Source: Bacteroidaceae bacterium (GTDB taxonomy: Bacteria > Bacteroidota > Bacteroidia > Bacteroidales > Bacteroidaceae). From it: a stretch of DNA of 64,000 bases. Location of the stretch: assembly GCA_017428785.1 (NCBI GenBank), contig JAFRQD010000067.1, positions 34,868 to 98,867 on the forward strand, written 5' to 3'. Each line of letters opens with the position of its first letter. The first letter of the stretch is position 1. Made by a program: the position numbers and the translations under genes. Positions 2,054-63,810 of the stretch are shown in pieces. Below the pieces are notes generated by a model. The model ran no database searches, was not told the origin of the DNA, and saw only the letters and a program-made list of their open reading frames with translations.

Positions 2054-2064
2054 CAATATAACAT

Positions 2065-2144
2065 AGCGTGCTTAGTTTGCCAACATGGCACGTTAAGTTT
2101 GCCAACATGGCACGTTAAGTTTGCCAACTAAGCGTGCTTAGTTT
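2065..2144 (+). repeat. Array of about 22-bp units, AT-rich form (family A/D)
   Basis: Two identical 22-bp units at 2085-2106 and 2107-2128 (core cacgttaagtttgccaac) are flanked by variant units with gcgtgcttagtttgcc at 2065-2084 and 2129-2144. The last unit overlaps the stop codon of the minus-strand gene that follows. Together with the family C array it forms a composite that recurs inverted at 50.3-50.5 kb. Confidence 0.85.
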
Positions 2145-7376: not shown

Positions 7377-7484
7377 AAAACGCCGCCTGCGGAATTGCCC
7401 AACGCCGCACGCGGAAATGCCAATCGCCGCACGCGGAAATGACCAACGCCGCAGGCGGCGTTTTGGGTCGCCGCAGGCGGTTCT
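7377..7484. repeat. GC-rich array of about 22-bp units (family A)
   Basis: Four units share the core aacgccgcacgcggaaatgcc with variants. The outer units are inverted relative to each other (aaaacgccgcctgcgg at the left, ccgcaggcggcgtttt at the right), so the array is bounded by inverted repeats. A further ccgcaggcgg follows. It fills the gap between dnaG and the mce promoter. Confidence 0.85.
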
Positions 7485-15370: not shown

Positions 15371-15727
15371 GAAAAAATCTTTACATAAAATGGTGTCGGA
15401 AAGTGGGGTGTTTGGTGGCGAGGCAGGCGTCGGAGGCCAACGCCGCCTGTGATGTTTGCCAACGCCGCACGCGATGTTTGGAATTTCCCCGTGCTAAATT
15501 GCCCAACGCCGCAGGCGGAATTTGGCGAAAATACACGCGGAATTTATCCATATCACATCTCGTGATTGTACTTTCTTTGCCCTCTTCGTCAAAAGACCTC
15601 TTCGCAAACCCCCGATATTACTGGGAAACGCGATTTAAGCCCTTATTTTGCCTTCGGGGTAGCAAAGTGCCTCAGAAGGAAAAATAAGCCGTCAGAGAGC
15701 GACTCACTTGGAAATATCTTGACAAAC
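15371..15727 (-). repeat. 356-bp non-coding element, copy 1 (inverted)
   Basis: This copy is the reverse of those at 27.4, 36.4 and 62.0 kb. It is 357 bp, bounded by related direct repeats (gaaaaaatctttacataaaa at 15371-15390 and ggaaatatcttgacaaac at 15710-15727, as read on plus). Its internal order is the same: a conserved block with taagggcttaaatcg-like sequence (here cgatttaagccctta) 66 bp from one end, a ggcaaagaaagta block, then an array of about 22-bp units. No coding frame is conserved between copies. Confidence 0.85.
15428..15550. repeat. Array of about 22-bp units within element copy 1
   Basis: About five degenerate units alternate gccgcacgcg or gccgcaggcgg cores with tttgcc/attgcc linkers. 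This is the family A array of the element. Confidence 0.8.
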
Positions 15728-22645: not shown

Positions 22646-22817
22646 GTAAATCGTGCCTTTTTTTGTTTTATGCCGCCAAATCTTTATGCATTCTTGCCAA
22701 TAGCCGCTTGCATTTTGCAGTAAGAACGATTGAATTTTGCTTGACATTTCCTTACTTTTACTGGGGAGAAGAATTGTATGTTCAGCGACGGGTTTCCAGA
22801 CGCCCTGTGGAGGGATT

Positions 22818-22910
22818 GCAAACGCCGGCTGCGGAGATTGCAATCGCCGCACGCGGAAATGGGCAACGCCGCACGCGGAAATGCCAATCGCCGCAGCCGG
22901 CGTTTTGGGG
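22818..22910. repeat. GC-rich array of about 22-bp units (family A)
   Basis: Four units: aaacgccggctgcggagattgc, then two with cgccgcacgcggaaatg, then cgccgcagccggcgtttt. The outer two units are inverted with respect to each other, as at 7.4 and 54.5 kb. Confidence 0.85.
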
Positions 22911-22993
22911 TATAGGCAAGCGCCTGTAACAGAACCGGTTGCAGAATGCTGATGAGGCTCTCCCGAAATCACCTGGACTGGCGGATACAAAAA

Positions 22994-23028
22994 CAGCTGC
23001 CTCCCTAAAATATAACGAGAAGCAGCTG
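22994..23028 (-). terminator. Terminator after the DUF5606 gene
   Basis: A 7-bp stem (gcagctg/cagctgc) is followed on the minus strand by a run of five T. It lies 53 bases after the DUF5606 stop and would end the nusB-to-DUF5606 transcript. Confidence 0.6.
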
Positions 23029-23080
23029 CCAAAATCTTTACATTCTGGTCGTATGAACGGAGGCAGGAGCAGTTGGGATT

Positions 23081-27371: not shown

Positions 27372-27726
27372 TTTGTAAACATTTTTCCTGGAGGCGTCTT
27401 CTCTGACGGCCTGTTTTTACTTCTGTGGCACTTTTCTACCCCAAACGAAAATAAGGGCTTAAATCGAATTTCCGGTGACAGTCAATCGGTTGCGAAAGGG
27501 CATTTTGAGTCGCAGGGCAAAGAAAGTACAGGCGTGGCATGCGAAGATGATAAACACTGCATGGTTTTGGGCTAAATACCACGTGGGGCGTTGGCAATCC
27601 TCGCATGGGGTAATTGCAAACTTCACGTGCGGCGTTGGCCAACTTCACGTGCGGCGTTTGTCGTCGCCCCACGCCACGATGTCAGATTCTTCATTTTCCG
27701 CTCCATTTTATGTAAAGGATTTTTCC
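27372..27726 (+). repeat. 356-bp non-coding element, copy 2 (reference)
   Basis: The element is 355 bp. It is bounded by tttgtaaacatttttcc (27372-27388) and the related ttttatgtaaaggattttt (27706 on). Conserved inside are a block from 27425 (gtggcacttttctacccc, then ataagggcttaaatcgaa), a gcagggcaaagaaagtac block at about 27515, and the 22-bp unit array. No conserved frame. The rest of the 785-bp gap up to hisH holds no recognisable gene. Confidence 0.88.
27578..27672. repeat. Array of about 22-bp units within element copy 2
   Basis: Four units: the last two both read aacttcacgtgcggcgtt, the first two are diverged (accacgtggggcgttggcaa; tcgcatggggtaattgcaaa). Confidence 0.85.
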
Positions 27727-27967: not shown

Positions 27968-28837
27968 ATGAAGGTCGCAGTAGTCAAATACAATGCCGGA
28001 AACATCTTTTCCGTCGTCCATGCTCTGAAGCGTATGGGCGTAGAACCCTTGCTGACGGATTCCCCCATAGAGTTGCGAAGCGCCGACCGTGTGATTTTCC
28101 CGGGTCAAGGCGAGGCGAGCAACGCGATGCGCTACCTTCGCGAGCACGGACTGGACGAGGTGATTCGTTCCCTCACGCAGCCCGTCCTGGGCATTTGCAT
28201 CGGACAGCAACTGATGTGCCGTCATTCGGAAGAGGGCGATACCGACTGCCTGGGCATCTTCGACGCGGAAGTAAAACGATTCGTCCCTCAGAAGCATGAG
28301 GACAAGATACCCCACATGGGATGGAACTGCCTCACGTTTAATATAGAGGGGCATGGGGCAAGGAGCAAGGAGCAGGAGAATACCTTAGAGGAGCAAGGGG
28401 CAAGGAGCAAGGAGCAGGAGAATACCTTAGAGGGGCATGGGGCATGGAGCAAGGAGCAGGAGAATACCTTAGAGGAGCATGGAGCATGGAGCAAGGAGCA
28501 GGAGAATACCTTAGAGGGGCATGGAGCAAGGAGCAAGGAGCAGGAGAATACCTTAGAGGGGCATGGAGCATGGAGCAAGGAGCAGGAGAACAGCAATCCT
28601 CTTGCCCCCTGCACCTTGCCCCTTGCCCCATTATTCCGAGGGTTGGAGGGGGCTCCCTTCGTCTACTTCGTCCACAGTTTCTATGTGCCGGTATGCGAGC
28701 ACACGGCTGCCGTCGCAGAATACATTCACCCGTTTAGCGCGGCCATGCAGAAGGGCAACTTCTATGCCACACAGTTCCATCCCGAGAAGAGTGGGGCGGT
28801 GGGGCAGCAGATTCTCCGTAATTTCCTCGAACTATGA
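27968..28837 (+). CDS. hisH: Imidazole glycerol phosphate synthase, glutaminase subunit, with a 14-residue repeat insert
   Basis: HisH releases ammonia from glutamine and passes it to HisF. The 289-residue protein is about 90 residues longer than usual (near 200). The triad is intact: C77 in GICIGQQ, H271 and E273 in FHPEK. The extra length is at residues 127-208: six in-frame copies of a 14-residue repeat containing ARSKEQENTLE or AWSKEQENTLE, from a 42-bp DNA repeat, between MGWN and FRGLEG...YFVHSFY. The start at 27968 is the conserved MKVAVVKYNAGN. It overlaps hisA by 4 bases. Confidence 0.93.
   Translation: MKVAVVKYNAGNIFSVVHALKRMGVEPLLTDSPIELRSADRVIFPGQGEASNAMRYLREHGLDEVIRSLTQPVLGICIGQQLMCRHSEEGDTDCLGIFDAEVKRFVPQKHEDKIPHMGWNCLTFNIEGHGARSKEQENTLEEQGARSKEQENTLEGHGAWSKEQENTLEEHGAWSKEQENTLEGHGARSKEQENTLEGHGAWSKEQENSNPLAPCTLPLAPLFRGLEGAPFVYFVHSFYVPVCEHTAAVAEYIHPFSAAMQKGNFYATQFHPEKSGAVGQQILRNFLEL
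28346..28630 (+). repeat. 42-bp minisatellite inside hisH, with an inverted tail
   Basis: Five full units begin at 28346, 28388, 28430, 28472 and 28514, and a sixth partial unit at 28556. Each contains ggagcaaggagcaggagaat. After the last unit, cttgccccctgcaccttgcc (28600-28620) is the rough reverse complement of the unit, so the block could fold back on itself. All units preserve the frame. Confidence 0.93.
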
Positions 28838-36386: not shown

Positions 36387-36743
36387 AATTTGTAAAGATA
36401 ATTCCAGGCGAGACGCTTTCTGAGCGCTTGTTTTTGCTCTTGTGGCACTTTGCTACCCCAAAGGCAAAATAAGGGCTTAAATCGAGTTTCCCTCTATAAT
36501 AAAGGGTTTGCAGAGAGGCGTTTTGAAGCGCAGGGCAAAGAAAGTACAAACCAAGTGCTTTGTGTGGATAAATTCCGCGTGGAATTTCGCCAAATTCCGC
36601 CTGCGGCGATGGGGAACTTCGCGTGCGGAATTTGTCATCGCCGCGTGTGGCGTTGCCCAACTTCGCGTGCGGCGTTTGATTCTTAGCCATGCAGAGTTTC
36701 CGATTACACCGTTTTTCGTCACTTTTTTTGTCAAGGATTTTCC
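36387..36743 (+). repeat. 356-bp non-coding element, copy 3
   Basis: 357 bp, with aatttgtaaagataattcc at the left and ttttgtcaaggattttcc at the right. The tacccc block is 67 bp from the left end and the gcagggcaaagaaagtac block and 22-bp array follow in the same order as copy 2. It fills most of the gap between the EEP gene and the DUF1295 gene. Confidence 0.88.
36570..36682. repeat. Array of about 22-bp units within element copy 3
   Basis: Five degenerate units, including aacttcgcgtgcggaatt and aacttcgcgtgcggcgtt. Confidence 0.82.
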
Positions 36744-50311: not shown

Positions 50312-50414
50312 GCCATGTTGCCAAACTAACCACGTTATGTTTGCGATTTAACCATGTGTAATTTGCAAACTATCCACGCGATGTTTGCGATTTCCCCGTT
50401 TGGCGTTTGCGATT
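50312..50414. repeat. 22-bp unit array (family A/D), inverted partner of the one at 2.1 kb
   Basis: Four to five units such as accacgttatgtttgcga, accatgtgtaatttgcaa, tccacgcgatgtttgcga. On the minus strand its end reads cgtggttagtttggcaacatg, close to cgtgcttagtttgccaacatg at 2.07 kb. Confidence 0.82.
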
Positions 50415-54496: not shown

Positions 54497-54588
54497 CCCC
54501 AAAACGCCGCGTGCGGCGATGCCCAACGCCGCAGCCGGGGATTGCCAACGCCGCACGCGGAAATTGCCATCGCCGCAGCCGGCGTTTT
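54497..54588. repeat. GC-rich array of about 22-bp units (family A)
   Basis: Four units with outer inverted ends (ccccaaaacgccgcgtgcgg; ccgcagccggcgtttt). Same design as at 7.4 and 22.8 kb. The rest of the 333-bp gap holds only a promoter. Confidence 0.85.
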
Positions 54589-62008: not shown

Positions 62009-62365
62009 TTTTGTAAACATTTTTCCTACTCCGACGCTCTCTGGCGCATTATTTTTGTTTCGGTGGCACTTTCCTACCCTAAATGCGAGAAATGCGCTTA
62101 AATCGAATTTCCCGTGACGTTCAATTGGTTACAAAAGGATATTTTGAGCCACAAAGCAAAGAAAGTGTCGGTCAAACACAAACAGCTGTTAAATCCCGCA
62201 TGAATTTTGGCCAATTTTCACATGTGGCATTAGGCAACTTCACATGAGGTAATTGCAAACTCCACGTGTGATGTTGCCCAACTTCACGTGTGGCGTTGCC
62301 CGATGCCCCACGCCCCGACACCAAATATCCCCTATTCTGTTGCATCTTTTTGTAAAAATATTTCC
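62009..62365 (+). repeat. 356-bp non-coding element, copy 4
   Basis: 357 bp, bounded by ttttgtaaacatttttcc and ttttttgtaaaaatatttcc. The taccct block is 66 bp in, then gcaaagaaagt and the 22-bp array. More diverged than copies 2 and 3. Confidence 0.86.
62212..62310. repeat. Array of about 22-bp units within element copy 4
   Basis: Four to five units: ttttcacatgtggcattaggc, aacttcacatgaggtaattgc, aactccacgtgtgatgttgcc, aacttcacgtgtggcgttgcc. Confidence 0.82.
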
Positions 62366-62741: not shown

Positions 62742-62859
62742 TGGCAGCATTCCGCATAGAATACAAACTTATTTGCTCAATCTCTCTGCCATACGTTACA
62801 TCTAACGAGATTAAAGAGCAAACCAAAGAATGATAATATTAATCTTCAAATATAACATT

Positions 62860-63810
62860 ATGAAACAAAAATCATTACTCTTTCTGTTGCTTGCCATGTT
62901 GACAAGCACAACCCTACATGCTCTCCCGATTTACGAATTTGAGAAAGACGGCATTTATTATCGCTCAATAGGGAATAATGAGGTTGAGGTAACTACAGAT
63001 GCTGATTTCCAAGAAATATGGGATGTTGGAGAGGGGGAGGAGCCTAACCCGTCGTATGGAGGTAGTTATTCCGGTGTGATTTATATCCCTGATTCAATTT
63101 CTTATTTCGGAACCACTTACTATGTGACAAGAATTGGTAATTGGGCCTTTTATGATACCAGGGTAACTTCTGTTATAATACCAGAAAGTGTGACAAGCAT
63201 CGGCAACTATGCCTTTATGTGGTGCGAACGTCTGTCATCCATCGACATTCCCAACAGCGTGACAAGCATCGGTAACGATGTCTTTTATTTTTGCGGTAGT
63301 CTAACCTCAATTACCTTCCCCGAGAACGTAACAAGTATCGGTTCCAATCTTTTTGGTTTTTGCTCCGAGTTAACATCTATAAATGTTTTACCAGATAATC
63401 CGTATTATGATTCTCGTGATAACTGCAATGCCATTGTCGAAACAGCAACAAATACGCTGATTTCTGGTTGCATGAGTACAATCATTCCAGAGAGTGTGAC
63501 TTGTATAGGTGACTCTGCCTTCTTTTATTGTACCGGTCTAACTTCTATCACAATCCCGGAGAAAGTGACAAGCATTGGCAACGGGGCCTTCGCAGGCTGC
63601 AAAATTACCTCCATCAACATCCCCGATGGCATGACTAGTATTGGCGAGTGGGCCTTTTGTCAATGCATGCGTCTGACTTCCATCAACTTCCCCAACAGCG
63701 TGACCAGCATCGGCGAAGGTGCCTTTTCGGAATGCAGCGGCTTGGAATCTATTACTATTCCAGAAAGCATTACTAGCATTAGTGATTGGACCTTTCATAG
63801 TTGTATTTAG
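62860..63810 (+). CDS. BspA-like leucine-rich-repeat protein, apparently cut short
   Basis: The 316-residue protein has a signal peptide (1-21) and about eight LRR_5 repeats of about 23 residues (ITIPESVTSIGNYAF types). The last reads ESITSISDWTFHSCI and stops at TAG, mid-repeat, with no C-terminal type IX tail as in other secreted LRR proteins. So it is probably truncated. AT content is higher than its neighbours. BspA-like proteins in oral and gut bacteria bind host proteins or other bacteria. Confidence 0.8.
   Translation: MKQKSLLFLLLAMLTSTTLHALPIYEFEKDGIYYRSIGNNEVEVTTDADFQEIWDVGEGEEPNPSYGGSYSGVIYIPDSISYFGTTYYVTRIGNWAFYDTRVTSVIIPESVTSIGNYAFMWCERLSSIDIPNSVTSIGNDVFYFCGSLTSITFPENVTSIGSNLFGFCSELTSINVLPDNPYYDSRDNCNAIVETATNTLISGCMSTIIPESVTCIGDSAFFYCTGLTSITIPEKVTSIGNGAFAGCKITSINIPDGMTSIGEWAFCQCMRLTSINFPNSVTSIGEGAFSECSGLESITIPESITSISDWTFHSCI

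What the first reader, a model, noticed from the sequence alone, without database searches (positions are those of the whole stretch)
27372..27726. A 356-bp non-coding element with direct terminal repeats, four copies in 47 kb
Copies lie at 15371-15727 (inverted), 27372-27726, 36387-36743 and 62009-62365, with lengths 357, 355, 357, 357. All have a related 18-20 bp sequence (type TTTTGTAAAnATTTTTCC) as direct repeats at both ends, a conserved block (taccccaaa, then taagggcttaaatcga) 65-67 bp from one end, a gcaaagaaagta block, and an array of about 22-bp units. The constant length and order, despite base divergence, mean the element is maintained as a unit. It codes for no conserved protein. 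Direct rather than inverted ends do not fit a classical MITE; it could be a non-autonomous mobile element, an RNA gene, or a chromosome-organising site.
Basis: seen in the sequence. Interest (0 to 1): 0.82.

Follow-up and report, generated by a model that had tools for sequence, protein, structure and literature searches.

The report
Fixed-length intergenic repeat family, ~355 bp
Some rumen Bacteroidales carry dozens of non-coding DNA blocks, nearly all about 355 bases long and bounded by the same short sequence in the same direction, which have multiplied in some species, have stayed in the same gene gaps in others, and hold a 22-base repeat whose letters differ from species to species.

Summary
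The window's draft genome (2.98 Mb) holds at least 50 copies; 42 of 47 full ones are 353-359 bp and four about one 22-bp unit longer. In a congener (G113, RUG12173) 20 of 40 matches were fetched; 17 of 19 measured read 354-356 bp, with a different 22-bp unit. Both ends are one motif, TTTGTAAAGATTTTTC, in direct orientation. No protein, Rfam family or extended RNA fold was found. A tree suggests separate expansions in G000 and G113; yet six of seven element loci found in the close pair G155/G156 share gene gap and orientation with a G000 copy. Five orthologous pairs differ by 353 substitutions but one internal gap column in 1,776 positions. Best reading: a non-autonomous, rarely spreading element kept as a fixed-geometry protein-binding block. 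Mover and binding protein are unknown. It is a new variant of the composite intergenic repeats (closest: BrickBuilt of Porphyromonas gingivalis), with direct ends, near-constant length and a species-specific array.

The parts
27372..27726 (+). element copy given in the finding (355 bp)
15371..15727 (-). element copy (357 bp)
36387..36743 (+). element copy (357 bp)
62009..62365 (+). element copy (357 bp)
27372..27387 (+). left end motif E (27.1 bits)
27709..27724 (+). right end motif E, same orientation (21.0 bits)
27425..27441 (+). core block GTGGCACTTTTCTACCC
27457..27467 (+). core block GCTTAAATCGA
27517..27528 (+). core block GCAAAGAAAGTA
27577..27661 (+). array of about four 22-bp units, limits by eye (the last two AACTTCACGTGCGGCGTT)
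   Evidence: lag-22 stretch 27595-27660
15372..15387 (-). E at right end of the inverted copy
15711..15726 (-). E at left end of the inverted copy
36389..36404 (+). E, left end
36727..36742 (+). E, right end
62010..62025 (+). E, left end
62349..62364 (+). E, right end

Best explanation
A family of non-coding, non-autonomous repeat elements of about 355 bp. Shown: sharp ends made of one motif E in direct orientation; near-constant length; position between called genes; very different copy sets in congeners; the same gene gap and orientation in several species; conserved columns changing more slowly in place than variable ones (two loci); a 22-bp array whose unit differs between species while its period does not. 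Inferred: E is the recognition site of a recombinase or transposase supplied in trans, because E also bounds other families with unrelated interiors. Inferred: after insertion the copy is kept because it is a platform of fixed geometry for proteins (two E sites, core sites, about four dyad sites two helical turns apart), so substitutions between sites are tolerated and length changes are not. Inferred: the array follows the changing specificity of one unknown dimeric DNA-binding protein, or is homogenised by conversion between copies.
For: At least 50 copies, 42 of 47 full ones 353-359 bp. G113: 20 of 40 matches fetched; of 19 measured, 17 read 354-356 bp, two read 362 and 366 because the script took an earlier TGT in the flank as the start, and one more had no right end by the script's pattern. 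Head tree: a 16-copy G113 clade (support 0.83) and G000 clades of 12, 8 and 8 (supports 0.0, 0.19, 0.91), with intermixed subfamilies. None of the 20 G113 loci has a flank match of 100 bp or more near a fetched G000 copy. Same gap and orientation as a G000 copy: 6 of 7 loci of the pair G155/G156 and 5 of 7 of G158. In-place constraint: two G156/G155 pairs differ at 24 of 287 conserved and 29 of 117 variable columns, p 3e-5. Length: 353 substitutions, 1 internal gap column in 1,776 positions over five orthologous pairs. E pairs in direct orientation, scores 10.7-25 bits, also lie around other interiors with arrays: L098, L100, L102, L105, L108, L109. No coding frame, no extended RNA fold.
Against: No mobilising enzyme and no autonomous relative was found; the only Y1 transposase gene found in the draft genome is flanked by another repeat. 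No filled/empty pair with alignable intergenic DNA was obtained, so the insertion junction is not shown. The in-place test rests on two loci. Conversion between copies could mimic constraint. No indel rate of alignable neutral DNA was measured, so the length constraint has no numerical control. No protein was shown to bind. One orthologous copy (L041) is degenerate: 20 and 2 gap columns against two relatives. Several species lack the element at a given site. At shared sites some copies are no closer to each other than to copies elsewhere, which fits re-insertion or fast change as well as plain descent.
Confidence: 0.5

Rival explanations
1. Purely selfish MITE-like element: moved in trans, no host function; sameness of length reflects what the mover accepts, and in-place sameness reflects youth or conversion.
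For: Lineage-specific clades, subfamilies, sharp ends, mostly unrelated flanks, E shared by families with other interiors.
Against: Present at the same sites and orientation across species whose flanking genes differ by roughly 7-25%, with length kept while much of the sequence changes; conserved columns change more slowly in place.
Confidence: 0.25
2. Chromosomal architecture element: a nucleoid or supercoiling site (REP/BIME-like) with an array bound by a nucleoid protein.
For: Between genes in any arrangement, many copies, dyad arrays at two helical turns; the gap of copy L029 carries 22-bp arrays of unrelated sequence in five species where the element was not found.
Against: Spacing along contigs uneven by eye, no relation to GC skew; other gaps do not show array persistence (gap 041: 0 of 4, gap 107: 1 of 7 species without the element); 18 of 24 congeners had no match to one copy, in a search that is weak for diverged copies.
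Confidence: 0.15
3. Transcribed RNA gene or RNA-level regulator.
For: Two neighbouring array units can pair (10 pairs, 7 with both-side changes); the consensus energies are -10.1 (53 copies) and -5.5 kcal/mol (41 G000 copies), the latter below column-shuffled controls (mean -0.13, sd 0.30); in G113 an inverted repeat at about 163-181 covaries (17 cells changed on both sides, 0 of 500 shuffles as high).
Against: No Rfam match; the predicted pairs lie in the array, the conserved head does not fold; 19 G113 copies fold to 0.0 on the forward and -1.2 kcal/mol on the reverse strand; dyad DNA sites would give the same covariation.
Confidence: 0.07
4. Transcription terminator or insulator at gene ends.
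For: In some copies the left E supplies or abuts the stop codon of the upstream gene, read by eye (L164, L177, L162, L168, L074).
Against: All four arrangements of neighbours occur (15 -/-, 11 +/-, 9 +/+, 8 -/+, 7 with one side uncalled, of 50).
Confidence: 0.08

Closest known systems
BrickBuilt MITE of Porphyromonas gingivalis (PMC4596501; abstract, section 5 and passages read)
   Same: Intergenic; a composite of leader, short tandem repeat (23 nt) and tail; 19 copies in strain ATCC 33277; non-coding. P. gingivalis is also of the Bacteroidales (recalled).
   Different: BrickBuilt has inverted ends (GAGACCTTTGCA type) and very variable length (84-991 nt, 1-22.8 repeats); here ends are direct, length is near constant and the array has about four units. 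The two sequences were not aligned.
REP / BIME with RAYT transposases (starts of abstracts in the listings; rest recalled)
   Same: Intergenic, many copies, short palindromic units that differ between species (species-specificity recalled).
   Different: REP units are tied to a RAYT gene; here the single Y1 transposase gene found (L212) is flanked by another repeat and no element match was found in its 3.3-kb locus. REP clusters have no fixed total length (recalled).
Classical MITE (definition in passages of PMC4596501 and recalled)
   Same: Short, non-coding, dispersed, shared ends.
   Different: MITEs have inverted ends and often target duplications; the ends here are direct and no duplication was seen.
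IS200/IS605-derived palindrome-associated elements (recalled)
   Same: Type B relatives show, by eye, a hairpin at the left end and in some cases at the right.
   Different: Type A ends show no hairpin by eye; no link to the genome's Y1 gene.

Membership tests
Classical MITE | terminal inverted repeats | tested here: not met
   E is in direct orientation at both ends of all four window copies and in the consensus of 40 copies
Classical MITE | target-site duplication outside the ends | tested here: inconclusive
   none apparent in the flanks; no alignable empty site was obtained
Classical MITE | autonomous parent with the same ends | tested here: inconclusive
   no longer E-bounded element noticed by eye among the end-motif positions of a draft genome at 84% completeness
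BrickBuilt | tandem short repeat between leader and tail, intergenic | tested here: met
   22-bp array inside the element, between called genes; the unit is 22 and not 23 nt
BrickBuilt | inverted ends, variable repeat number | tested here: not met
   direct ends; 42 of 47 full copies 353-359 bp
REP/BIME with RAYT | repeat flanks a Y1 (RAYT) gene of the same genome | tested here: not met
   one PF01797 gene; the profile finds no element or array in its locus, another repeat flanks it; the genome is a draft
Structured non-coding RNA | conserved fold with compensatory changes over most of its length | tested here: not met
   only array units pair, plus one dyad in G113
Structured non-coding RNA | transcription | not testable with these tools
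   no RNA-seq
IS200/IS605-type non-autonomous element | hairpin at both ends | not tested
   ends of types A and B were judged by eye only
Integrase-mobilised element with attL/attR | integrase acting on the end repeats | not testable with these tools
   no enzyme identified; integrase genes were not searched

The most novel reading that the evidence does not exclude
A chromosome-wide system in which one DNA-binding protein (or complex) recognises a 22-bp dyad site whose letters are replaced across the genome as species diverge, while the period is kept; the 355-bp element is its fixed-geometry docking block and E the boundary signal by which such blocks are copied. At one gap (that of copy L029) ten species carry 22-bp arrays: five inside the element, five of unrelated sequence without it; two other gaps tested do not show this.
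Probability: 0.2. Interest if true: 0.85.

Novelty: new variant of a known kind. Interest (0 to 1): 0.6.

Why it matters
Short composite repeats fill bacterial intergenic DNA, and it is rarely clear whether they are junk or kept. Here near-constant length with free substitution, retention at orthologous gaps and lineage-specific bursts occur in one family, so the question can be tested directly by strain comparison and pull-down. The change of the array's letters between related species, with the period kept at 22, resembles co-evolution of a binding protein with its sites and would give a natural series for studying it.

Tried and rejected
Coding: in the best 35-codon window 40% of 53 copies have a stop (70% in shuffled copies, so related sequences do run freer of stops) and conservation has no 3-base period (1.18, 1.14, 1.08 bits). 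In G113 the best window has a stop in 14% of 14 copies, without a shuffled control, so coding is less firmly excluded there. RNA gene: see rivals. RAYT as mover: the Y1 gene's surroundings hold another repeat. Viral or plasmid origin: 0 exact matches of one core pattern in viral contigs, no blastn match of one copy in plasmids or phages at E 1e-5. Strand polarity: none. Cassette exchange between E sites with E left behind: no E seen by eye in five species without the element at the gap of L029. General persistence of arrays at element sites: true at that gap, not at gaps 041 and 107. L066/L042 was not counted as orthologous because the matching gene lies about 3.8 kb away. A donor for the fast-changing stretch was sought among held loci only; none was found. 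Of 139 genomes searched only a few were followed.

Literature: the six searches listed no paper that, by title and start of abstract, describes this element; that is a statement about those searches only.

Full report
What was checked. A search of the window's own genome (G000, 2,981,395 bases in 71 contigs, completeness 84%) gave 41 matches, the tool scoring only 40 of 235 candidates. With regions fetched around these and around further end or core motif matches, a profile search kept 50 copies of at least 120 bits starting at the left end; 47 are full by the script's rule, 42 of them 353-359 bp, four 375-380 bp and one 347 bp, measured on the aligned stretch. Rows below 120 bits or starting later than profile position 10 (type B relatives, solo arrays) were dropped from this count. 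Not every candidate place was fetched, so 50 is a lower bound.

Anatomy. Left end TTTGTAAAnATTTTTCC, right end ATTTTTGTAAAGGATTTTTCC, same orientation; conserved head with GACGGCTTnTTTTTG, GTGGCACTTTnCTACCC, GCTTAAATCGA, GTTTGCGAAG, GCAAAGAAAGTACAA; a variable stretch; about four units of 22 bp; a tail. A matrix for the end motif E, built from G000 copies (the window's included), has eight matches above 20 bits in the window, the eight ends; the next best scores 15.2. Each 22-bp unit is roughly a dyad around CGTG, read by eye: AACTTCGCGTGCGGCGTT in G000, GATACTCCGTGGAGTATC in G113, AACTTAACGTGTTAAGTT and similar in G155/G156.

Relatives. An exact core pattern found 31 loci in other MAGs named Bacteroidaceae, Prevotellaceae or Bacteroidales, several titled as ruminant gut samples. 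By the profile, 18 start with E (type A), 12 are a related type B with the same core and an array but other ends, the left one a hairpin by eye, and one (L081) was below the listed score. Type B also occurs in G000 (7 loci). Other G000 loci have two E sites in direct orientation, 272-358 bp apart, around different interiors that also hold an array: L098, L100, L102, L105, L108, L109. In one search, 6 of 24 congeners and 0 of 16 genomes of other families had a match to one copy; in four of the six (G008, G012, G013, G024) the matches are short and mostly to the array. Copies in G113 matched another copy only weakly (best 2.9e-17), so diverged copies can be missed.

Spread. The tree of 91 heads has a clade of 16 G113 copies and several clades of G000 copies, with supports between 0.0 and 0.92, and intermixed subfamilies; four of the 91 are the same copy reached twice (L219/L074, L222/L176, L228/L054, L051/L177). 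None of the 20 G113 loci has a flank match of 100 bp or more within 1.2 kb of a fetched G000 copy. This fits lineage-specific expansion.

Retention. Seven type A loci were found in the close pair G155/G156 (L162, L174, L164, L165, L173, L273, L170). Six lie in the same gene gap as a G000 copy: five with both flanks matched (G000 loci L040, L029, L085, L034, L041) and one with one flank (L107); all six have the same orientation. Of seven in G158, five do so, again with the same orientation (G000 loci L029, L040, L026, L027, L107); one of these, L197, matches the profile only from position 67. The G000 set was chosen for holding elements, so the count asks only how many foreign copies have a G000 partner. 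At shared sites some copies are nearest neighbours across species (L170/L265/L266; L177/L184), others are as distant as copies elsewhere; mean head distance is 0.33 for 18 same-site pairs and 0.37 for 47 different-site pairs.

Evolution in place. The flanks of two copies shared by G155 and G156 differ at 125 of 3,999 positions, the head at 23 of 300, the variable stretch (151-205) at 34 of 110, the array at 23 of 190, the tail at 12 of 109, with no gap inside either element. The flanks are mostly coding, so the neutral rate is higher than 3%; the variable stretch still looks several-fold above the intergenic flank by eye. Columns conserved among G000 copies differ at 24 of 287, variable ones at 29 of 117 (p 3e-5). 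In all, seven orthologous pairs were aligned this way; five (with L216/L026, L173/L085, L170/L265) give 353 substitutions and one internal gap column in 1,776 positions. The two pairs with L041, whose right end is degenerate, gave 20 and 2 gap columns and are left out of that sum.

What it is not. No frame is open in most copies; no Rfam match. RNAalifold gives -10.1 kcal/mol for 53 sequences with one helix between two array units; for 41 G000 copies -5.5 against -0.13 in column shuffles, again with the pairs in the array; pair statistics show pairing excess mainly in the array. In G113 a dyad near 163-181 covaries, which fits a DNA dyad as well as an RNA hairpin, and G000 copies show little of it. 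Elements lie on either strand relative to GC skew (26 of 50 positive). The nearest called ORFs (80 codons or more; one side uncalled in 7 of 50) end outside the element or overlap it by at most 10 bp; because element bases were masked by stops there, that script could not have shown an ORF running through the element or two halves of one broken gene.

The 22-bp period. Among short-period arrays (identity 0.70) lag 22 or 44 makes up 8 of 13 in the window, 53 of 58 in the element-selected G000 loci, 24 of 29 in 31 named foreign loci, 9 of 13 in G113 loci and 3 of 8 in one region of 29 relatives; shuffled controls gave none. At the gap of L029 the element is present in G000, G156, G158, G159 and (left flank only) G162; five other species have at that place arrays of unrelated letters with best lag 22 (local identity 0.70-1.00, 0 of 100 shuffles as high). 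For G157, G161 and G164 only the left gene anchors the place. The same does not hold elsewhere: at gap 041, 0 of 4 species without the element have an array (in one the gap is 5 bp); at gap 107, 1 of 7.

Reading. Shared ends with different interiors point to ends as recognition sites for copying; near-constant length and slower change of blocks point to a fixed-geometry binding block; the array's species-specific letters point to a changing binding protein or to homogenisation. None of these proteins is known. The only Y1 transposase gene found in G000 is flanked by another repeat family, so position does not make it a candidate. Integrase and other transposase genes were not searched.

Compared with what is known. 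BrickBuilt is the nearest in build, but has inverted ends and variable length (PMC4596501: abstract, section 5 and passages read; passages of PMC5771137). REP/BIME and MITE comparisons are partly recalled. Six paper searches listed no description of this element.

Noticed in passing
window 2063-2128, 7393-7458, 22818-22883, 50323-50410, 54518-54583: Solo arrays of 22-bp (or 44-bp lag) units without the element's head, outside the four copies.
   Followed up: partly
L212 (G000:C56:71986-72324): Single Y1 (RAYT-like) transposase gene flanked by a REP-like repeat (CCCAGGGC..GCCCTGGGCTGACATCT); a related motif ending CCGGACAGCAATA lies just left of several element copies.
   Followed up: partly
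window 28344-28590: Tandem repeat of 42 bp, 5.9 copies, 95% matches.
   Followed up: no
window about 22673-23045: A weak E-like direct pair about 355 bp apart around a solo array, seen by eye; only the right one scored (11.1 bits).
   Followed up: no
L178, L195 (G155): G155 contigs end in or near places where G156 carries an element, as expected for repeats in draft assemblies.
   Followed up: no
L172/L173 against L085: G155 has about 3.84 kb, with genes and a solo array, where G156 and G000 have the element.
   Followed up: partly
window 62830-63810: BspA-type leucine-rich repeat protein next to the fourth copy.
   Followed up: no
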